Below, in pieces: positions 35,177-57,100 of a DNA stretch of 64,000 nt. The first letter of the stretch is position 1. Each line of letters begins with the position of its first letter. The translations under genes were made by a program, and so were the position numbers. The notes under the pieces were generated by a model that ran no database searches, had not been told where the DNA came from, and saw only the letters and a program-made list of their open reading frames with translations. Origin of the DNA: Progne subis subis (lineage: Eukaryota; Chordata; Aves; Passeriformes; Hirundinidae); contig JAKJHU010000336.1 in NCBI GenBank assembly GCA_022316685.1, positions 62,001-126,000 on the forward strand, in the 5' to 3' direction.

Positions 35177-36154
35177 CTAGTGGTGGTTCGAGGGCATGGG
35201 GCAGCCCTTGATGCGGAACACGTGGATGTGCAGGTGGGCAGCAATTCTGGCTGCACACGCTGACACAGTATCGGAGCAGGTCAGACAGGGACAGGATCAG
35301 GGCAATTCAGAGGGCAATATACTTATCAATAAAGCTGTTAAAATGCGTGGTCAAGGAACAGGAATGCCGGGCTTATGAATGCTGTGTCATATAAATACAT
35401 TTCACTCTTGGTCATGTGGGCAACCACCAGTTGATTTGTGATCTTGGCAGACACAAAGCCAAAAGTCAGAGTGTAGAGGCAGAGGTGCCTCTCAAAGAGC
35501 TGCACAGCAGATTTCTTGTAGATCATTGCAGCCAAGGCAGTCACAGAGCCAATATGGAGAAAAGGTGAGAGGACACTTGTTCCTGCTAAAGTGGATCCAT
35601 TTTTGCCAACTCCAGTTTGCACAGGAGAATATGGTTCCTGCTACAGTACAAAGAGCCGGGAGTATTTTCACCTGAGTGTTCAGCATTGGAATCAGAGATT
35701 GCTAAAAAGCTGGTCTTCCAATCACTGCCAGTAAATGCATGATTATTATGAAGATTTGTACTTTAGTCACATCAATCATGCCGAAGCACAGCGTTCTTGA
35801 GATGTGCGTCTGTCAGCTGTGCAGTAAAACATGAATGTCACAGCAGAACAACAGAAGAACATCCAGTCAGGGTTGGTGTCCAGCTGCACAACAATACAAG
35901 TTCCCAAAACCACAAAGACTGTGGACAATGAATCACAGTCATGATTAAAAAGCTCTCCTGACGGAGTGCTGCTATTTGTCCTTCTTGCTTGTTTTCCATC
36001 TATTGCATCCAGGGACTGGAATGCCACAGGCACAAGCAATGAATGTCCAGGAAGGCGCCTGCCCTGTATCTGTTGGGCAGTAACATACTAATAACAGAAG
36101 TGTAAATATATTTATTAACAGTCTGATGATGGTGATCAGACTGGGGGCAGTCCA
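35177..36154 (-). pseudogene. CEPT1: CEPT1-like sequence, intronless, fused to gag
   Basis: CEPT1 is the ER/nuclear-membrane choline/ethanolamine phosphotransferase that makes PC and PE from diacylglycerol. The minus strand reads most of such a protein without introns. It enters at [15 protein letters not shown], then the CDP-alcohol phosphotransferase motif DGKQAR with [17 protein letters not shown], where the first Asp after GELF is Asn. Later segments include [39 protein letters not shown] and a C-terminal SNHH stop at 35177-35179. About the first 80 residues of the parent are missing. Several frameshifts (near 36030 and 35770) inactivate it. The 5' end joins retroviral capsid sequence in the same frame and strand. 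CHPT1 is the alternative parent; the C-terminus favours CEPT1. Confidence 0.8.
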
Positions 36155-37291
36155 GGCTGGAGAACTGATATCTGCAGTATGAATACAATCTAACATTGTT
36201 CGAGCATTTTCAGATTTCAAGCCGTGCTCCTTTATTGTTGTTTGTGGGGTTGTTTTTTTGTTTTCTTTTTTCTTTTTGCTTGTTGCAAAATTTTCCATTC
36301 ATGCTGCTCATACACAGGATTGCCATCTCTGAACATGACAGGACATGCTACAAGACATGCCATGTGTCCTGTGGGTTCCCACTGTCTTTCTAGGATAACA
36401 CCACATATAATTCCAGACCATCGAGTCATGGCGGGGGACGGGCGAATGCATTGCCTGGGGACTGCTTTGTGCAGTTTGTTCTAGAAGTTGTTGCATTGGA
36501 GTTAACTGAGAGCTGAAAGATGCTGGCTCCTCCTGATTTTTAGCATTTATTGTAGATAGTTCTTGGGCTTTTTCCAGCAGCAGCTTAGTTGCGCTTGCGC
36601 TCACTCCTTCAGGCGCTGCATCACTGCCTGAATTTGATCAGTCAGTTCTTTTAAACCAGTCGTGGGTTCTGTCCGGGGTTCTGCTGGGGGAAGCAGTGCT
36701 CCATCATCGAGGTCCTCCTCTAATTCATCCGGCAGTGGAACAGCGTCTGGGGAAGGTGGTTAACAGCAGGGGTCACGGGTTCCCCTCTCTTGGTCGACCG
36801 GTGTCTCTTTGGGCACAGCCAGAAAAGGAGGGGCACATGGCACATGTGTAGTGGTAGCAGTAGGGCTGGGAGTGGCTCCGGAGGGGTTTTGAAGCATTTT
36901 GGCTACTGTACTACACTGGGTTGCCGTCAAGCCTTTGATCGGGGGGAGCGCCTTGCTTCTGAGAAAAGCTCCAAGCCGGCTTGGTGGTGGTGGTGGCGGG
37001 GAGGGAGCAGCGCACCGGAGCTCAGGTGACGGGGATGGTCTGCGAGCCGGGAGCGGTGAGCCGGGCATCGGCCAGTGACGGTGCCGGGGCGCTGGAGGCA
37101 GCAGGAGGGCACGGCAGGGGCCCCGCAATGTCTCCCCAACTTCACAGCATCAGGGGGTTGTTAAATGTCCATTTCCTTGCACCCAGTTAATCAGCTTTTG
37201 CAGTTCTTTTTCTGCTACTGTTTTTCCTCTCTCAGAGTATAATAATAAGCAACTTCAATGCGGCAGCAAATTCGCACTCCATGCTTGCCAT
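36155..37291 (-). pseudogene. ERV-6 truncated gag
   Basis: The minus-strand ATG at about 37291 opens a matrix-like start (MASMECEFAAALKLLIIIL). One frame change later it continues into a helical region, then a Pro-rich linker (36760-37128) and a coiled segment with LKELTDQIQAVMQRL near 36640. Capsid begins near 36440 with RWSGIICGVILERQWEP, an [10 protein letters not shown] segment and, after an A-rich 36-base insertion at 36247-36285, [15 protein letters not shown] and HTADISSPA. There capsid stops and CEPT1-like sequence takes over. The rest of capsid, nucleocapsid and pol are not found downstream. Confidence 0.75.
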
Positions 37292-37971: not shown

Positions 37972-38640
37972 GTCAAGGAACAAACAATCATGCTTCAGCT
38001 GATTGTCATCAAAAACAATCCCAAGACGCTCCACAAACTGCAACAGCTCTGTGGTTCCATTAATTGGGTTCGACCCCTTCTTGGCATTTCCTCAGAAGAC
38101 CTCACTCCGCTTTTTAACCTTCTGTGAGGGAGCTGTGAACTCAGTTCTCCTAGGAGCTTGACCCCTAATGCAAGAAAGGCAATTACCTGCATCCAAGAGG
38201 TTCTGTCAGCCTGACAGGCCCACAGGTATGATCCATCTTTGCCGTTTCTGCTTGCAGTGTTAAGTAGAGTCCCACATTGGAGTGGACTGATTTTTCAATG
38301 GGACCCGGACTTAAAAGACCAGTTGCTCATCCTCAAATAGGTTTTCCTTCAAGCACAACCAACTAAAACAGTAACCACACCGCAAGGAACCATGGCAGCA
38401 GTCATCTGTAAGGGCAGGGCTCGCTTCCGCTCTCTTGTGGGGTGTGACTTTGCATGCATCTACATGCCATTGGCAACTACCGAGGAGCTAGAGTTTCTGC
38501 TCCAAAATAATGACAACCTTCAGTTCGCCGTAGATATCTATCTAGGAAAAATTTCCATCCATATCCTGGCCATAAATTATTTAAAGCAGAACTTCATTTG
38601 GTTCCCAAATTCATTCAAGGTAAAACTCCTCTCGAGCTGT
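37972..38640 (+). pseudogene. ERV-7 reverse transcriptase thumb and connection
   Basis: A plus-strand pol that starts abruptly at LTR B. Readable parts are LHKLQQLCGSINWVRPLLGI (thumb) at about 38024-38083, LSSPRSLTPNARKA near 38139, a connection segment with GLIFQWDPDLKDQLL near 38288, and 38392-38676 (MAAVICKGRARFRSLVGCDF). The sequence is close in kind to ERV-4 and ERV-5 pol. Stops near 38125, 38213 and 38338 interrupt it. Palm, fingers and everything 5' of them are missing. Confidence 0.8.
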
Positions 38641-40049
38641 GACAGTCTTTACAGACGGCTCAGAGTCTTCTCATAAGTCAGTCATGACTTGGAAAGGCAC
38701 TAGGACACCGAAGTGGGAGTCTGACATCCGAGTAGTGGAAGGATCTCCACAAATTGCTGAGATGGCAGCCATTGTCAGGGCATTAGAGAAGTTCAAAGAC
38801 CAACCGTTTAACCTAATCACAGATTCAGCATATGCAGCTGGTATAGTTATGAGGGCTGAACATGCCTTTTTAAAGGAGGTGTCAAATAGAAACATTTATA
38901 ATTTGCTTCCTGAACTGACTTATCTCCCACAGAAAGCAACCATATCATGTCATGCATGTGAGGTCGCACACTGACCTTCCCGGTGCCATTGTGGACGGCA
39001 ACAAGAGAGCAGATGCACTGGCAATGGCGGCACACACACCAGCCCTCCCAGACACGTTCCAACAAGCCAAGCTCTCCCATCAATTTTATCATCAGATTGT
39101 CCCAGCACTAGTGAGGATGTTTCACCTCACCAGGGAACATGCCAAAGCTGTGGTAGGATCATGTCCACAATCATATCTGACGTGTTCGTGTCTGCCAATC
39201 ATACCAGGAGCACTTTGTAGACAAAGGCATCAACACAGGAGGCCTCAATAGTAATGAACTGTGGCAGACGGACGTTACACATGTTCCATCTTTTGGTAGG
39301 CAGAAGTATATTCACATGACAGTAGATACATTCTCAGGTGCAGTTTTCGCCTCAGCACATGCAAGTGAAAGCTTCTACTTTGTTAAAAGACATTTCTTAT
39401 TGGCCTTTGCAACTCTGGGAATTCCCCAGAAAATGAAAACAGACAATGGCCCCGCCTACTCCTCAAAAGAGATAAAGGCATTCTTCCAAGATTGGGGCAT
39501 CAAACATAACAAATGGACTCTCCCACAGGCCAATCAGTCACTGAGAGGACACATCAGACTCTTAAGAGAGTCCTTCACCAACAGCAGGGAGGTACAGAGA
39601 CACTTCCTCCCGTTGAGAGGCTCTGCAAGGCACTTGATCTAATGAACTTTCTAAGTTGTTCAAGCACTGAGCCGAACGCCCCCGTCATCAGGCACTTCTC
39701 AAATTCAGCCTAAGCTAAGCTTGAAGAGAAGCTGCCTGTGTTGATCAAGGACCCAGAAACACATCAAATATCAAGCCCTCTTCAGTTGATTACCTGGGGT
39801 AGAGGGTACGCATGCATATCCATGCCTACAGGCCCTAGGTGGCTTCCTGCAAAGAGCATCAAACCTTACCTAGGACCCACAGATACTAATAAAGCCAATT
39901 CTGAGCAAAATACAGAGTCACCAAAGGTGCAGCAGACAGCCACTTGGAAGAGGAGGAGAAGATGGCCAGTCCCACAAAAGACAGCTCAGTGTCCTGTGAC
40001 CAGACAACAGCCAAGACAAGCAAGGCCTACCGGATGTAACAAAAACTAA
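38639..40049 (+). pseudogene. ERV-7 RNase H and integrase
   Basis: RNase H is in 38639-38974 (TVFTDGSESSHKS, NLITDSAYAAGIV). Integrase spans three broken frames: the HHCC region in 38952-39251 (HQFYHQIVP, HLTREHAK), the core in 39260-39642 (DVTHVPSFGR, MTVDTFSGAVFASAH, KTDNGPAYSS) and the C-terminal domain with a basic tail in 39738-40049 (LIKDPETHQISSP, WKRRRRWP). The frame breaks lie near 38960, 39160, 39250 and 39530. The order matches a class II pol. The stop at 40047-40049 is followed by about 190 pyrimidine-rich bases before the cystatin-like ORF, not by env. Confidence 0.82.
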
Positions 40050-40189
40050 GAAAAGAAGTGATTTCTTTCCTTACCCTTTATTCCTTACCCTTATTTCCTT
40101 ACCCTCTCCCACAAAATCTTTTTACCCAAGCTATGTTGTTGACTTTATTTAAAAATATCTCTTCTATTTGTTAAACTACTAAATTGTTG

Positions 40190-40205
40190 GTTTTTATTGA
40201 TATAG
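40190..40205 (+). promoter_or_regulatory. Splice acceptor candidate before the cystatin-like ORF
   Basis: TTGGTTTTTATTGATATAG ends 37 bases before the ATG at 40242. It is a plausible 3' splice site for a separate subgenomic RNA. Confidence 0.45.
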
Positions 40206-40241
40206 AACACTGACCCACCGTCCTGCAAAAAGAGACAAAGT

Positions 40242-40892
40242 ATGGGGAAAAGACATATTCTCCTGCTGATTGTTTTTATCATCACCACCCAGACCGTGGT
40301 CCGGGCAGTAGAACACCCAGAAACAGATGCTGCAGTGCAGAAGATGCTGTGATACGCTATTGCCCAGCATGACTAAAGTAATTACCATCTGCTCCCAAGC
40401 CAAATTGTAAAGGTCATAAAGGCAGAAAAGCAAGTTGCAGGAGGAATCAAATATAACATAGTGGTGAAATTAAAACAAGATAACAAGTATGAACTATGTA
40501 ACTTAGTGGTATTTAATACACCATGGAAGAACTCAATACAAATACTAAAAGACCAATGCCAAAAGAGTGAGCCCCCAACCAACACTCCTGATCCGAAAAA
40601 GACTGATATAACCACTCTAAAACCTCTAACAACTGACTTTAGACATAAAAGTGAAGACCAAGTCAGAGAACACATAGCTGCTGAAAAAATTTATGAAACT
40701 CCTTATTTCTTTGTTATTACTGTAACCATTCTTTTACTGCCTTTATCCATCTATCTTTATCATTTATATCATCGCAAGCATGTTATTAATGCTGTCTTTT
40801 CAGCTTTTCAACAGGGAGGGGAGAACAAACTAGACAAAGACAGTAAAGGATCAGAGGACGATCCAAATAACCTGCCAAACACCCCCCCTTGA
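40242..40892 (+). pseudogene. Cystatin-like ectodomain with stalk and transmembrane segment, inside ERV-7
   Basis: Cystatins inhibit papain-like cysteine proteases. From ATG 40242 one frame gives a signal peptide (MGKRHILLLIVFIITTQTVV), then a cystatin fold. It has the N-terminal helix region (AAVQKML), the QVAGG inhibitory loop at 40431-40445 (family consensus QxVxG) and LVVFNTPWKNS with the second-hairpin PW at 40521-40526. Only the last of the two type-2 disulfides is visible (LCNL, DQC). A Thr/Pro-rich stalk follows, then a hydrophobic helix (FFVITVTILLLPLSIYLYHL) and an acidic tail of about 40 residues to TGA 40890-40892. TGA at 40350 and TAA at 40374 interrupt the first third. It lies between integrase and env, so it looks like a captured host gene kept as an accessory ORF. 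Secreted cystatins lack the membrane anchor. Confidence 0.72.
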
Positions 40893-41017
40893 AGGGACAG
40901 CAGTTTAAATTTCTTTTATCTTACCCCCCTCAAAAACTTCCCCAGATACCTGTTTCCCGTACCCCTTCTTTTCCTAAAGTTCCCTAGTGCCTAAATAATA
41001 TGTTGATAGTTTAAACT

Positions 41018-41032
41018 AGTTTTTCTTTTTAG
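41018..41032 (+). promoter_or_regulatory. ERV-7 env splice acceptor candidate
   Basis: TAGTTTTTCTTTTTAG ends 28 bases before the env ATG at 41060. Confidence 0.5.
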
Positions 41033-41059
41033 AAGCAAACCCCAAAGGACCCCTCTGAG

Positions 41060-41840
41060 ATGAGAGGCAGTTACCGTGTCACAGTGATGCGGATGCTCCT
41101 CACACTCCTCATGCTCCTCAACATCAAAGCATGGAAGATGGGACAACCACCAGAAAATGTGTGGGTGACACTTGCCAAGACCCTCCAGCAAGACAATTTG
41201 TGCCTGTCCATGGGCTCCGTCAGCAGTCCTCTGTCGTCGTGCCTGGTAGGAATCCCATTCGGAATCAACGAGCCATCACCTCTGCATCCCTTTGCAGGGA
41301 ACTGGCCTGCCCTGCCCACCGCAGAGAAAGCACCAGCCCGAGAAGCCTGGGAACAGTGGGTGAAGCTCATACCCAAAGCTACAACAGACGCTCACAAAGA
41401 AAACCCAGTAGCAAACTCCGAGTCCCAAGAGCTTGATCTGCTTGTCTCAGCAAAAGCTAGTCATTGTTTTAATTTTTACTTTCAAAATATGGCCTCTAGT
41501 TACAAAAATCAAAGTAAACCCCCTAAACAAAATTTACAATTTAGTCAACTGGTGCAACTACACAACAAAAATTCCATTTGACACTTCCTGCTTCCTTATT
41601 CCCAGGGCACTTCCCAAGGGTGTGTTCCTAATTTGCGGCGATAGGGCGTGGGCAGGAATCCCTTCCCACATCTGAGGAGGTCCATGAATTTTTGGCCGAC
41701 TTACAACACTCACCCCAAACATTACTCTCTTACAAGAATGGAAACAAAAGAATAAATTTGCCCGTCCAAAAAGATCCTATACCAAATTTGACAAAAATTT
41801 TGATGCCACCCTTTTTGATTGGTGTCCTTGGGTGACTTTA
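41060..41840 (+). pseudogene. ERV-7 env, surface part only
   Basis: The ATG at 41060 gives a signal peptide (MRMLLTLLMLLNIKAW), then ENVWVTLAKTLQQDNLCLS, related to the start of the ERV-4 surface subunit. After a stop at 41579-41581 the frame 41433-41675 continues with ALPKGVFLICGDRAWAGIPS, a segment shared with ERV-4. It breaks again and ends near 41840 with a Trp-containing FDWCPWVTL. The transmembrane subunit and 3' LTR are absent: an unrelated LTR begins at 41841. Confidence 0.78.
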
Positions 41841-42455
41841 TGATGCTTGTATCTCCAGTCATCTGCTCTGTTTGTGCTGTATATTGAGTTCTGTGCCTTT
41901 AAGATTGGTTCTAAGAGCAAGGAGTAGTACAGAGTTTGTTTTGAGAAAACTGCCTGACTCCTACACATTCTTCTCTGGACGGGGTGTTCAGTAGAGATTT
42001 TTTTTTTGCTTTTAGTTAGTTTCAGCATGCGAGGGCAGAGAAGTTCCCTGGACTGTTTTTTTTCCTTTTTCTTGGAACTGTTTAAACCTGCTCTGGACTG
42101 AAAACCCAGGGGAGCACTGGGAGCTGCACCTGCTGCCCACTGGGGCCTGGAGCTCGGCATTTTCCAGCAGCGCCGGAGGGACTGGGACTGAGGAGAGACT
42201 GAGAGAGAGCCGAGCTCCACCCACGGCAAGAACTTTCTCAATTTGCCATCTCACTCCAGAACGAGAGGTTTTATTGTTTCATATTATTAATTCCTTGTAC
42301 TTGTATGCACTTTGTTTGTTAAGTAAAATAGTTTTTTCCACTTTTCTCCAAAGAAGTTTTTTACCGGACTGGTTGGAGGAGGGGCCACTTGGGTTTGCTT
42401 CCCAGAGGGATCTCATTCAGGGGTTTTCTCCCAAATTTGTCACTAAATCAGGACA
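41841..42455 (+). mobile_element. ERVL-type LTR
   Basis: Starts TGATGCTTGTATC, ends AATCAGGACA, with T-rich tracts, a GC-rich middle and the late motifs GACTGGTTGGAGGAGGGGCCAC and GGTTTTCTCCCAAATTTGTC that recall class III bird LTRs. Its left edge abuts broken env of ERV-7 and its right edge the satellite. No target duplication is seen. Confidence 0.5.
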
Positions 42456-43075
42456 GAGTGATTGAGACCAAATGGACAGAGATGAAATGAGGCAAAATGA
42501 AAAGGACAAAAACTTGCCAAAAGTACTCCAAATGCTGCAATCAGGCAAGAAGTGGAAATAAAGGAAGGAAGGAGAGAAAATTAAATTGAGGAAATGCAAG
42601 CTTAAAATGAAAAAGCGAAAAATGTTTAAAGCATGTAAAAAGCAAAAAGTGAATGGGATGACAAGAAGTGTAGGAAAAGGGGTTGAAGCTTGCCCAATTA
42701 ATCTTCCTTGAAACCTTGAAAAGAGGGAACAAAGCCTAACAAACACTCAGGAAAGGAGATATTGTGAGAAACAGTAGGAATGGAAACAACCGAGAATATT
42801 TGGAACCAGAGTGATTGAGACCAAAGAGACAAAGATGAAATGAAGGTTACTGAAAAGGGCCAACACTTGCCAAATGTACTCCAACTCAAATTCTGCAATT
42901 AGTCAAGAAATGGAAATAAATGATGGAGAGGAAAAAAATCTAAAAAATGAAAACTTAAAACTAAAAAGAGAAAATTTTGAAAGCATGCGAAAAGAAAAAA
43001 GTTGATGGTATGAGAAAAAGTGATGGAAAAGGGATGGAATCTATCCGCATTAATCTTCATTGACATTGCAAGATG

Positions 43076-43125
43076 GCATTCACTTTCCCAAAAGGAAAGT
43101 GTTCCTTTCGGGAAAGGGAATGAAA
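43076..43125. repeat. Palindrome inside the satellite unit
   Basis: CACTTTCCCAAAAGGAAAGTG is a near-perfect hairpin, followed by a second inverted segment CCTTTCGGGAAAGG. Related palindromes lie at 44521-44570 and 44935-44980, in the longer units only. Confidence 0.75.
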
Positions 43126-43368
43126 ACTTGAAAACAGGGAACAAAGTCTAACAAATGCTCAGGAAAGGGGATATGATGAGAAACAATGTGAATGAAAAGA
43201 ACCAAGAAAATTTGGATCCGGAGTGATTGCGACCAAATGGACTCAGAAGAAATGAGGGGCACTGAAAAAGGATCAACACTTGCCAAACATACACCAATTC
43301 AAATGCTGCAATCAGGCAAGAAATGAAAACAAATGAAGGAGAGGAAAATAAATTGAAGAAATGCAAGC

Positions 43369-44043
43369 TGTTGAGGGTTAAGTTCTCCTGTAGAATTTTT
43401 CCCCCCTTGAGTTGCTAGATTTTTAAGTAGGGGTAGTTAAGCGGTGCTTAACCTGACAAAAGAAGTTGATCACTTGATTTTGGGGGAGGGAGAAGGCTCC
43501 CAGGAGAACTAAGGAGTGGGCTCACTTCTCTCGGTCTTCCCGGGGAGGACAGTCAGGCTACGGAGTAGCTGCCTGGAGTCCACAGCTAGCGGAGGAGTCT
43601 GGTCCTGGGAATTCTATCATCTGTTGGAGTGCCCAGGAATTCGGAGTTTCTTCGTTACCCTGCTGGATTTTGGGTCAGCCCGGGATCCAATCACTGCGGG
43701 TTCTCCGGCACTGCCCACTTTGCCTGCCGGGGCACCCCGCCTGCCTGCTGAGGACAATCCACCGCTTCCAGCTTGCAGCCATCAGCGACGGACTTTGCCA
43801 CCGTTTGCCCTCAGGGCTCTTGGTTCTGTTTTACTGTTATTATAAGTGCTGTTGTTGTTTGTCTGTCCTGTTATATTTACTAGTAAAGGACTGTTATTCC
43901 TTTTCCCTATAGCTCTGACCGAAAGTTTTTTTTTTTTTTAATCTTCTATATTATAATAACATGGAGGGAAAGATTTGAATTCCTTATTTCCTGGAGAGGC
44001 TTGCCTCTCCTTAGCAGACAACTGTCTTTTTCAAACCAAGACA
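43369..44043 (+). mobile_element. Solo LTR, ERVL-like, with 5-bp target duplication
   Basis: 675 bases from TGTTGAGGGTTAAG to AAACCAAGACA, inserted in the satellite. CAAGC at 43364-43368 and at 44044-44048 flank it. Five bases is the duplication size of ERVL-type integrases. No internal sequence remains, so it arose by LTR-LTR recombination. Confidence 0.85.
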
Positions 44044-45191
44044 CAAGCTTAAAATGAAAATGGGAAAATTCTGAAATCACATGAAAAGCAAAAAGTGAAT
44101 GGGATGATAGGAAGAGCAGGGTAAACAACTGAAGCTTGCCCAATTTATCTTCATGAAAATCTTGAAAACAGAGAAAAAAAATAACAAATGCTCAGGAAAG
44201 GAGCTATGGTGTGAAACAACACGAATAAATATAAAAAGGAGAAATTTTGGAACCAGAGTGATTGTGGCCAAATGGACTGAGCTGAAATGAGGGGCACTGA
44301 AAAGGACCAACACTTGCCAAATGAACACCAAGTCATGTGCTGAAATCCGTCAAGAAATGGAAATAAAAGAAGGAGATGAAAAGAAATCCAAGAAATGCAA
44401 GCTTAAAATGAAAAAGGGAAAAATTTGAAAAAGGGAAAAATTACAAAATGAATGCGATGACAAGAAGTGCAGGGAAAGGGACAGAGGCTTACCAAATTAA
44501 TCCTAATTGAAATTGCAGTATTTCATTCCTTTCCCAAAAGGAAAGTCATCCTTTTGGGAAAGGGAGTGAAATATTAAAATCAGGGAACCAATTAGAACAA
44601 ACACTCAGGAAAGGAGATATGATGAGAAAAATGTGAATTAAATCAACTGAGATAATTTGGAACTGGAGTAATTGTGGCCAAATGGAGACTGAGATTAAAT
44701 GAGGGGCACTGAAAAGGACCAACACTTGCCAAAGGTACTCCAATTCAAATGCTGTAATTAGGCAAGAAATGGAAATAAATGAAGGAGAGGAAAAGAAATG
44801 GAAGAAATGCAAACTTAAAACGAAAAAAGGAAAAATTTTGAAAGCACGTGAAAAGCACAAAATGGATAGTATGACAAGAAGTGCAGGGAAAGGGACAGAA
44901 GCTTGCCCAATTAATCTTCATTGAAATGGCAAGATTTCATTCCCTTCGGAAAGTCTTCCTTTCGGGAAAGGGAATGAAATCTTGAAAACAGGGAACAAAG
45001 TCGAACAAACACTCAGGAAAGGAGATATGATGAGAAACAGTGCAAATGAAAACAACCGAAAATATTTGGAACCAGAATGATTGAGACCAAATGGACTGAG
45101 CTGAAATGAGGGGCACAGAAAATGACCAACTTTTGCCAAAATACTCCAATTCAAATGCTAACATCAGGCAAGAAATAAAAATAAAAGAAGG

Positions 45192-54160: not shown

Positions 54161-57100
54161 ATGGTGGGCAGAGCGTTCAGCCTGTTCAAGGTGTCTCAGG
54201 GCAAAACCAAGAAACGCCCTGCAGCTGCCCCGGCACAGCAGCCTGAAGAGCCAGAGCAGCTGCAGCCACTGCAGGCCGGTGAGCGGCAGAGCTGGGCCGC
54301 AGGGCCGGTGCCTGTGGCCAGCTTGGCCCCATCCCAGGCCCTGTGGACTTGCCCACGGACAGGAGGGAACAGGGGCTGGGGCTGCGCTGGCTCTGTTCCC
54401 TGGCCATCCGGGGGCTGCCCCTGTCTGGGCAGCACAGGGCTGGGCTGTGTTCTCTGGCCGCTCCCGATGCCGCTCAGCACCGGCTGCGTTCACTCTTTGC
54501 CAGATGCGGGCGAGGAACAGACACCAGAGCAGGACCCTGCCCGTGACTCTCTGCCACGTGCGGGCGAGGACCGGACACCAGAGCAGGACCCTGCCCGTGA
54601 CTCTCTGCCACGTGCGGGCGAGGACCGCACACCAGAGCAGGAACCTGCCCGTGACTCTCTGCCACGTGCGGGTGAGGACCGGACACCAGAGCAGGACCAC
54701 GCCCACGGCCGCTTCCGCAGAGCACTGAAGGTACCTGCGGCCACCCCCCCCTGGGCCGGGCCTGCTGTCCCCTCTGGGCCGAGCACTGCGCTTGGAGCGT
54801 ACCACGGAATGTCCCTCTCCTCCCGCCCTTCTTTCTGCTGCAGATCTTGCGGAGATTCCTGCGCCTTCGGCGTAGGAACACCACCACGGCAGCAAGCGAG
54901 GCCACAGCCCAGCCCGACTGCAGGCCGACCGAGCTGCGGGCAGAGCCCGGTGCCAACACCGCGTCCACCGAGGGCGCAGCAAACTCTGCCCGGGCAACGG
55001 CCGAGGGCAAGGCAAAGGCTGACGTGGCCCTGACTGAGGCCATGGCCAGCACCAACACCCACACGCCGGGCATCTCAAAGACGGAGGCCACGCCCACGCA
55101 GACTGGGACTCCAGCTCTCCCTCTGGAGTGTTCCAAGGAGAATGGTGGTTTCCATCTGCAGCAGGCAAGCAGCTTAGGGCCAGGGCTGAAGGTCTCCCAG
55201 GGTGCTGTGGCCCCTCAAGCCACATCTGCTGGGCCCTCTCAGCCTCTGAGGCAGCTGAGCACAATGTGGTGGGAAGGCAAGCGCTTCTTGCGGGAAGCTG
55301 GGGAAGTTGCTCCCCTGGACAGCACTCCAAGTCTTCCCCATGCCTCCTCCAGGTGCCAGCCATGGTGAGGGACATTCACCAGAGACTCGTGCCCCGTGTT
55401 ACTGTGGATGGCCGGCTGCAAATGGTCATTCAGAGGCTGGCTGAAGAACACACTGCTTGTGTGGTGATGAGCCTCCTGCGCTGTGCCCCATCGTGTGACA
55501 GGTACGGGGCACAAGTGCCTTGAGAGCTCGGGGCTCACGGGCCTGAAGAGCCTGTCCAGCGGGCTCTGCCGCACAGGCGGAGAGCTCCGGGACCCTCGGG
55601 CCCCTCTGTTTCCTTGAGCCTGCTGCCATGCTCCCTCCCTGCCCCTCAGGGCACCGGGGCTCGGTAGCGACACACAGCTCTGCTCCCACAGAGCTGCCGC
55701 GCTGATGTGGAGAACCATCGGCTCGTCGAGGCTGGCAGCAAAGAAGGTGCTTCCCGCGCTGCTGTCCGTGATGCAGGACGGGCCGCTGGACAGCACATTC
55801 TTCTCCAGAGGGGATGAGGCCATCCTTGCCTTGGCTGTGAGTTTCTGGAGCTGGCCCTTGCTCGCCCTCCAGGCCGCCTCTCCAGCAGCTCTCCATGGCC
55901 TCCCCACCCTGCAGCTCCCTGCCTCAGGCACTGGGCCCAAAGCTGGGTCAGGGGCAGCAGGCCGAGCTCTGCCACATGGACACCTCGGCACTGAGCGCTG
56001 CCTCGGCCTGCTTTGTCTTTTGCAGGCAAGTGTGGTGCTGTGGTGGGTGATTGCCCACGTGCCCGAGTGGCACGACACCGTCCTTGGTCACTCCGCCCGC
56101 CTGTTCGTGGCTCTGCTCTTCCAGATTTTCAGCACCACAGAGCAGATGCCAAAGGAAGTTGACAACTTCTGGAGGGCGTGCCAGGAGGAACACCGCCTTC
56201 CCACCAACCCTAACAGGTCCCAGTCGTCCTGCCCTTCCCACGCCCTTGCGGCCAGGGCCAGCGCTCCCAGTGTGACCTGGCCTTTGCTCTGCACACAGGT
56301 TTGCAGTGCAGACCATGAAGGCTCTGCTGTGCCTCCTGAGCTGGGAGAATGGGGTGCTGGCTCTGGAGCGCAAGTGCGTCTGGGACACCGTGCTCTGTGC
56401 CGACACCCGGCACTATGCAGCGGGCCTGCTGGCCAGCTGAGACCCCCACTGCTCCTCCCCACCACCAGTGCCGGCATTTGTGCCCGGAGTGCCCCGCAGA
56501 GTCCCCCTGTGGTTGTGTCCCTTGTCACCAGGGGATGGCCGAGCGGACTGGAAAGGGCTGGGAGAGGAGGGAGCCCAGTGGCAGCCGCCTCCCAGCGGGC
56601 CAACGTCCCCTCCTAGGGTGCTAGGGAAAGATCAGACCTCTGCAACTGAGCCCTGGGAGAGGTTTGTCCGCCCGGCTCAGGGCCTTGCTGCCTTTTTCCC
56701 CTGCCAGGGAGATGCGCCGTGGCCTGGCCCACTTGTGTTCCCACATCGCCTTGCGCCTGCTCAGCCTGCTCATCGGGAAGCGGCCACGCTGGGATCTGCC
56801 TGCCCTGGCCTTCCTTGTGGAGGTGAGCCTGAGGGCCGGCGCTGCCTTGCTGAGCTGTCTCCCGGCTCTCTGCCCTCTGGCAGCTGCAGCCGCCTGGGAC
56901 GGGGCCCGTGTCCGGTGCTGCTGCTGGGCCACGGGCCTGTGCGGTTCCGGGCTCCCGCCGGCCGGCTCCCCTGTCACTGCCCTGTGCCTTTCAGGTCCTG
57001 GAGTGTCTGGACTTGAGCAAACACGGTCACCATGCGCTGAGGGTCATGTCCAGGCAACTGCCGAGCGAGTGCAGGGACAGGCGGCGCCTGCAGCTCAGGG

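What the first reader, a model, noticed from the sequence alone, without database searches (positions are those of the whole stretch)
40190..41060. Membrane-anchored cystatin-like gene carried between pol and env of an endogenous retrovirus
Seen directly: one frame from 40242 with a signal peptide, a cystatin-type QVAGG loop, a PW hairpin, one disulfide pair, a Thr/Pro stalk, a transmembrane helix and a tail. It sits between integrase and env of ERV-7, with a pyrimidine-tract splice acceptor before it and a separate one before env. ERV-4, related in pol and env, has only about 50 bases at this place. Known: cystatins inhibit cathepsin-type proteases, and type-2 members are secreted. Inference: a retrovirus captured a host cystatin and made it a type I membrane accessory protein, perhaps acting on cathepsins in entry or antigen processing. 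I know of no described retrovirus with such a gene, but could not search.
Basis: partly seen in the sequence, partly recalled or inferred. Interest (0 to 1): 0.92.

Follow-up and report, generated by a model that had tools for sequence, protein, structure and literature searches.

The report
Membrane-anchored cystatin in bird retrovirus
A songbird genome holds dozens of copies of a broken retrovirus fragment that carries, between its integrase and envelope genes, an extra gene for a cystatin-type protein with a predicted membrane anchor, likely captured from a bird and likely used to block host cathepsin proteases.

Summary
The feature is real. Frame 40242-40892 encodes a signal-like start, a cystatin domain, a stalk, a predicted transmembrane segment and a tail, between integrase and env. 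The window copy is not open: it has two in-frame stops. Of 43 copies examined, 18 hold the whole 216-aa frame open. Open copies pass Pfam's Cystatin cut-off (4 of 4), and the predicted fold matches cystatins. The gene has no introns where the host cystatin gene has two.

Two corrections matter. The copies are not independent insertions: 41 of 43 places share one junction from a cut env into a foreign LTR, so one defective fragment was amplified as DNA, and it now drifts neutrally (pN/pS 1.08). And support for a selected gene comes from elsewhere: P0124, an open 209-aa homologue (38% identical over its length) on an unplaced sequencing contig. Its own neighbours are unknown.

Best reading: a captured cystatin accessory gene of an avian retrovirus, probably tethering a cathepsin inhibitor to membranes. 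Inhibition is untested and the loops are altered. Capture between pol and env has a precedent (KIT-ligand in CrocERV29).

The parts
38639..38974 (+). RNase H piece of pol
   Evidence: PF00075 36.6 bits, cut-off 25.8
39316..39642 (+). integrase core piece
   Evidence: PF00665 43.6 bits, cut-off 32.6
39738..40049 (+). integrase C-terminal piece
   Evidence: PF00552 28.7 bits, cut-off 21
40186..40205 (+). predicted splice acceptor before the cystatin gene (AG at 40204-40205)
   Evidence: sequence; five of five swallow gene models start their match here
40242..40892 (+). cystatin-type membrane protein gene, 216 codons; this copy has in-frame stops at 40350-40352 and 40374-40376
   Evidence: open in 18 of 43 copies
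40242..40307 (+). predicted signal peptide (residues 1-22)
   Evidence: hydropathy of open copy L003; boundary assigned by eye
40308..40562 (+). cystatin domain (residues 23-107), QVAGG at 40431-40445, PW at 40521-40526, cysteine codons at 40497-40499 and 40557-40559
   Evidence: open copies: Pfam, PDB sequences, fold
40563..40691 (+). stalk (residues 108-150)
   Evidence: low pLDDT; sequence
40692..40775 (+). predicted transmembrane segment (residues 151-178)
   Evidence: hydropathy windows starting at 150-158 in L003; helix 152-201
40776..40889 (+). predicted cytoplasmic tail (residues 179-216)
   Evidence: sequence
41013..41032 (+). predicted splice acceptor before env (AG at 41031-41032)
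   Evidence: sequence; three of five swallow gene models
41060..41581 (+). 5' piece of env (173 aa)
   Evidence: no Pfam hit; 30.6% identical to the env piece of ERV-4 over 160 columns, E 5e-4
41800..42455 (+). LTR-like stretch of another element joined to the cut env (left end approximate)
   Evidence: collinear with L040, where the LTR runs from TGTCC at 923 to GGACA
42454..45150 (+). repeat family recurring mostly at about 350-410 bases, shared by the flanks of the fetched copies

Best explanation
The frame at 40242-40892 is a cystatin-type gene between integrase and env of a retrovirus fragment, likely captured by an avian, likely class II, retrovirus from a bird egg-white-type cystatin mRNA, and predicted to make a type I membrane protein that would hold a cathepsin inhibitor on the luminal or outer side of membranes. 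Shown: cystatin homology, no intron at the two host joints, a constant place, open frames in many copies, and a diverged full-length homologue with the same layout. Inferred: a spliced host mRNA was copied into the viral genome; the segment around the first disulfide was lost and stalk, anchor and tail were gained before the two known lineages split. A separately spliced mRNA using the acceptor at 40205 would express it, and env would use its own at 41032. The tethered domain would most likely meet papain-type cathepsins in endolysosomes or on virions and block them, sparing virions or Env and possibly dampening antigen processing. In this genome the gene survives in one truncated fragment that was multiplied as DNA and now drifts neutrally.
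For: Pfam Cystatin over the cut-off in four of four open copies. Best PDB sequence match is chicken egg-white cystatin, E 9.1e-11. AlphaFold2 domain blocks at pLDDT 82-93; 35 PDB matches at E<=0.001, all cystatin-family chains. The host cystatin gene has three exons, and the viral frame crosses both joints without an intron. Integrase in 30 of 30 loci and env in 29 of 30. Five of five swallow models start at the predicted acceptor. P0124: open, same layout, 84 of 222 identical, E 5e-48, cystatin part 34 of 85 and anchor region 29 of 40 identical. Env relatives at about 40% with frames of 427-500 aa (6 places on 5 contigs) have no Cystatin match on their contigs.
Against: All fetched copies descend from one rearranged fragment. 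No LTR-bounded provirus with the gene was found. pN/pS 1.08 over 43 copies and dN/dS 1.14 over 91 pairs of open copies show no selection here. The inhibitory loop is QVAGG, not QxVxG; the N-terminal trunk with the glycine of secreted cystatins (recalled) is missing; P0124 has QVKGN and LW and does not reach Pfam's Cystatin model. P0124's genomic neighbours are unknown. No RNA or enzyme data.
Confidence: 0.55

Rival explanations
1. The gene is viral, but the cystatin domain no longer inhibits proteases; it serves as a binding module for Env, a receptor or an immune ligand, and the anchor region carries the constrained function.
For: Altered loop (QVAGG here, QVKGN and LW in P0124) and a missing first disulfide segment; anchor and juxtamembrane region 29 of 40 identical against 34 of 85 for the domain; P0124 misses the Pfam Cystatin model.
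Against: In the window lineage Q, G and PW are kept and the predicted fold is a good cystatin. Fast change of the domain is also what an arms race would give.
Confidence: 0.26
2. The gene was never part of a replicating virus: a host retrocopy or rearranged piece landed in one defective ERV and was amplified with it.
For: One shared env-to-LTR junction in 41 of 43 places, shared rearranged 5' flanks with an antisense host-gene piece, neutral drift, no own LTRs found.
Against: Two acceptor sites placed for separate mRNAs, a complete signal-to-tail frame, and the open homologue P0124 at 38% identity, which a single recent accident does not explain.
Confidence: 0.15
3. The amplified gene now serves the bird, as a domesticated membrane cystatin.
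For: 18 of 43 copies are open; 73 ERV-type places on 67 contigs.
Against: pN/pS near 1. Drift allows many open copies: mean pairwise divergence 2.8%, and 4.7% of single substitutions make a stop. No copy stands out as protected.
Confidence: 0.04

Closest known systems
CrocERV29 with captured KIT-ligand (PMC4299795; passages and section 9 read)
   Same: Host gene captured between pol and env of an ERV, env kept; nine copies with an open frame; surrounding viral genes broken.
   Different: Another host gene (the soluble KIT-ligand form); crocodilian ERV of another class; purifying selection reported there, none seen in the copies here.
CrocERV31 with captured nectin3 (PMC4299795; passages)
   Same: Host membrane-protein gene captured by an ERV.
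   Different: There it replaces env.
Bracovirus cystatins (PMC2553070; abstract and outline)
   Same: Cystatins carried by a virus and turned on host cysteine proteases.
   Different: Polydnavirus of wasps, not a retrovirus; I saw no mention of a membrane anchor in what I read; positive selection reported there.
Chicken egg-white cystatin (1a90, 1cew)
   Same: Domain fold, PW hairpin and second disulfide.
   Different: Secreted, two disulfides, QLVSG loop, gene with introns in the window's species; no stalk, anchor or tail.

Membership tests
Cystatin superfamily (PF00031) | Sequence over the family cut-off | tested here: met
   30.2-32.1 bits against 22.2 in four of four open copies; not met by the window's broken pieces or by P0124
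Cystatin superfamily (PF00031) | One helix wrapped by a four- to five-stranded sheet | tested here: met
   predicted; 35 PDB matches at E<=0.001. The alignment holds 40 cystatins, which favours this fold; the run without an alignment gives the same order at low confidence
Inhibitory (type 2) cystatins | QxVxG loop | tested here: not met
   QVAGG here, QVKGN in P0124: partial motif; the motif itself is recalled
Inhibitory (type 2) cystatins | PW in the second hairpin | tested here: met
   present in all ten viral rows of the alignment; LW in P0124
Inhibitory (type 2) cystatins | Two disulfides; N-terminal trunk with a glycine | tested here: not met
   only the second cysteine pair is kept, and the trunk aligns to a gap (features recalled)
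Inhibitory (type 2) cystatins | Inhibits papain-type proteases | not testable with these tools
   needs an enzyme assay
Retroviral captured accessory gene | Lies among viral genes at a constant place | tested here: met
   integrase 30 of 30, env 29 of 30 loci
Retroviral captured accessory gene | Intronless against an intron-bearing host gene | tested here: met
   both host joints crossed
Retroviral captured accessory gene | Independent LTR-bounded insertions | tested here: not met
   copies share flanks and the foreign LTR; no other genome could be searched for full proviruses
Retroviral captured accessory gene | Kept open by selection in the virus | tested here: inconclusive
   P0124 implies it, but its host and neighbours are unknown; copies here are neutral
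Retroviral captured accessory gene | Expressed from a spliced viral mRNA | not testable with these tools
   acceptor-like sites and gene models only

The most novel reading that the evidence does not exclude
Birds hosted a retrovirus lineage with a cystatin accessory protein: a membrane-tethered cathepsin inhibitor, made from its own spliced message and kept under selection long enough for two lineages to drift to 38% identity. It would be the first retroviral cystatin, and a retroviral answer to endosomal proteolysis by inhibition rather than avoidance.
Probability: 0.5. Interest if true: 0.86.

Novelty: new variant of a known kind. Interest (0 to 1): 0.72.

Why it matters
Captured host genes beside a retained env are rare outside oncogenes (recalled); the KIT-ligand case is the clearest that I found. 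A protease inhibitor would be a new class of retroviral accessory function. [quoted passage not shown] A retroviral cystatin would make that idea testable. I saw no report of one in the searches that I ran: 'cystatin'+'endogenous retrovirus' (30 of 67 papers listed), viral-cystatin phrases (10 of 10), 'endogenous retrovirus'+'passerine'+'accessory gene' (none), gene-capture terms (15 of 266 listed, 12 of 44 listed) and cystatin/retrovirus/cathepsin/env/entry (12 of 46 listed). The library holds only open-licence papers, and I judged most of these by title and start of abstract.

Tried and rejected
Many copies as proof of viral spread: rejected, because they share flanks. Selection in the copies: looked for and not found. 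By part, pN/pS is 3.66 in the signal (20 nonsynonymous, 2 synonymous), 0.98 in the cystatin part, 2.0 in the stalk, 1.22 in the anchor and 0.48 in the tail (20 and 11): small counts, not interpreted. A second, decayed lineage in this genome, suggested by matches with stops: not borne out at the one such place that I fetched (L075, 96.7% identical to L003); the others were not read. Dating by LTR pairs: not possible, since I found no LTR pair of the element's own. Relatives in IMG/VR for the cystatin, its alignment, env and P0124, in GTDB contigs and in phage records: none found. Is G000 the barn swallow? The env part of P0005 matches at 92-93% at best (100 of 2930 candidates scored), so likely not, though not excluded. 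PMC3325921 holds the word cystatin only in its reference list. NCBIfam: no hit. Rfam: none in the window.

Full report
What is in the window. Otherwise the description holds: hydrophobic start, QVAGG, PW hairpin, two cysteines, a Thr/Pro/Lys-rich stalk, a hydrophobic segment and a polar tail. RNase H, integrase core and integrase C-terminal pieces lie upstream, each over its Pfam cut-off; a 173-aa env piece lies downstream, without a Pfam hit. The integrase C-terminal domain is PF00552, which I recall as typical of class II retroviruses. The related ERV-4 has 52 bases between integrase stop and env ATG (its env piece is 30.6% identical).

Copies. The window lies in a genome of 1.166 Gb (G000). 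A DNA search scored 40 of 99 candidates; all 40 matched over the full query at 97-100%, the window itself included. A search with the Cystatin family gave 83 matches (105 of 105 candidates scored). Ten lie on contigs C446, C1112 and C2231, which I take as host genes (I read one gene on C2231 and exons on C446, not C1112). The other 73 places lie on 67 contigs; I read sequence at part of them. Of the 30 loci, 14 hold the frame open to codon 216. Of 43 aligned places (those 30 plus 13), 18 are open at exactly 216 codons and 21 have an indel against L003; L046 is open with a longer end. The 43 stretches are 41 distinct sequences.

Identity of the domain. Pieces of the broken window copy score below the Pfam cut-off but find chicken cystatin in the PDB at E 7.8e-6. 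Open copies reach 30.2-32.1 bits against 22.2 (four of four); the same stretch also scores on the cystatin-like SQAPI model, above its cut-off in three of the four. The best PDB relative of an open copy is chicken egg-white cystatin, E 9.1e-11; a plant cystatin and an engineered one follow at 5.5e-7 and 8.3e-7, mammalian cystatin C at about 5e-5. AlphaFold2 without an alignment gives helix 30-45, four strands over 54-108 and a long helix from 153 (mean pLDDT 58.9). With 47 rows (7 viral, 40 bird cystatins chosen from 118 listed) blocks over residues 21-110 average 82-93; those cystatin rows favour the result. Of 441 PDB matches, the 35 with E<=0.001 are cystatin-family chains (one, Al-CPI, I recall as such). 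In the library of viral proteins no match reaches E 0.001; a giant-virus protein named as cystatin-domain appears at E 0.22.

Origin. The host's egg-white-type cystatin gene on C2231 has three exons, ending ...SAKRQ...QMAK and ...ESKCQ plus stop. The viral frame crosses both joints without an intron, lacks about 20 residues around the first disulfide, and runs on past the host's C-terminus into stalk, anchor and tail. In a tree of 50 rows the viral genes and P0124 form one clade (98/93), placed with 25 non-passerine rows and apart from the passerine ones, the host's own included (99/100). The stem to the viral clade (2.5) and P0124 (3.09) are long, only birds were sampled and the root is arbitrary. 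A donor outside passerines is a lead, not a result.

A second lineage. A search with residues 105-216 found one protein, P0124: 209 aa, on a 2107-base contig from source 'lgn', which I take to mean the Logan assemblies (one of six candidates, E 7.8e-10). It aligns over nearly its whole length with the window lineage, 84 of 222 identical, E 5e-48. By parts: cystatin 34 of 85, stalk 8 of 17 aligned, anchor and juxtamembrane 29 of 40. It has QVKGN and LW, misses the Pfam Cystatin model and reaches chicken cystatin only at E 0.006. Two open frames at that distance are unlikely to be neutral relics (inference), so selection likely kept this layout somewhere. The listed matches of P0124 in G000 are 35-61% identical, so P0124 is not from this genome.

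The barn swallow. Five gene models of Hirundo rustica hold part or most of the gene (P0001-P0005). P0001, P0002 and P0004 start in the same RT piece as the fragment here, and P0005 ends env at the same point, so the swallow likely holds the same defective unit. G000 is likely another species (env part 92-93% at best).

How the copies multiplied. I fetched the flanks of six copies in separate pieces. Against one of them, the other five and the window are collinear for at least about 5.3 kb upstream, with gaps. This shared flank holds an antisense piece of a CDP-alcohol phosphotransferase gene (PF01066, 30.1 bits, cut-off 22, in L035). Downstream, the cut env joins an LTR that has no polypurine tract before it, and then a repeat family recurring mostly at about 350-410 bases. 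A similar LTR upstream follows a polypurine-like stretch and another element's integrase, so I take the LTR as foreign. I compared 57 loci, which are 43 places because 14 were fetched twice, with one reference: all run collinearly through integrase and the gene, apart from a small deletion or duplication in one; 41 of 43 places cross the same env-to-LTR junction. One (L013) breaks off after the gene, its env lying about 5 kb further on, and one locus (L052) ends too early to tell. Five places have an insert in env (L004, L007, L008, L010, L052). So one rearranged fragment was multiplied as DNA. It drifts: pN/pS 1.08 (105 nonsynonymous, 4 stops, 28 synonymous), mean pairwise divergence 2.8%, largest 7.4%; dN/dS 1.14 among 14 open copies, 91 pairs. 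Among env matches of at least 77% identity the longest open frame is 274 aa, while distant env relatives (39-40%) reach 427-500 aa at six places on five contigs, one with a stop in the match; none of those contigs has a Cystatin match (150 of 1363 env candidates scored).

Mechanism. Shown: domain, layout, place. Inferred: a separate spliced mRNA, entry into the secretory path, a luminal or outer cystatin domain on an anchor, and blocking of papain-type cathepsins where virions and Env meet them. A review describes both cathepsin activation of some retroviral Envs and cathepsin destruction of virions (PMC3523128, passages), so the sign of the effect is open; protection seems the more natural use. 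Against inhibition stand the altered loop, the missing trunk and P0124's loops. The anchor and juxtamembrane region is the best conserved part, so tethering or sorting may matter as much as the domain.

Known or new. Host-gene capture between pol and env is known: KIT-ligand in CrocERV29 (PMC4299795, section 9); a review names that position (PMC6431247, one passage). Viral cystatins are known from bracoviruses (PMC2553070, abstract). I saw no cystatin in a retrovirus in the searches named under Why it matters. I rate it a new variant of a known kind.

Noticed in passing
L035:3611-3886 (-); window 35972-36298 (-) looks alike: Antisense piece of a CDP-alcohol phosphotransferase gene (PF01066) inside the repeated unit upstream of pol. 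The window part was judged by eye only.
   Followed up: partly
window 42454-45150: Repeat family recurring mostly at about 350-410 bases that follows the LTR and recurs in the flanks of the other copies; it may have helped to amplify the unit.
   Followed up: partly
G000 C2342, C2629, C2408, C2250, C2808: Distant relatives of this env with open frames of 427-500 aa and no Cystatin match on the contig.
   Followed up: no
G000 C1202:99289-105764: One copy in which about 5 kb of other DNA separates the gene from its env piece.
   Followed up: no
window 54492-54698: Tandem array of a 54-base unit, 3.8 copies, 93% matches.
   Followed up: no
G000 as a whole: The copies lie mostly on short contigs (tens to hundreds of kb), whereas the host cystatin gene lies on one of 29.6 Mb; this could mean a repeat-rich chromosome such as the W. 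Not tested.
   Followed up: no
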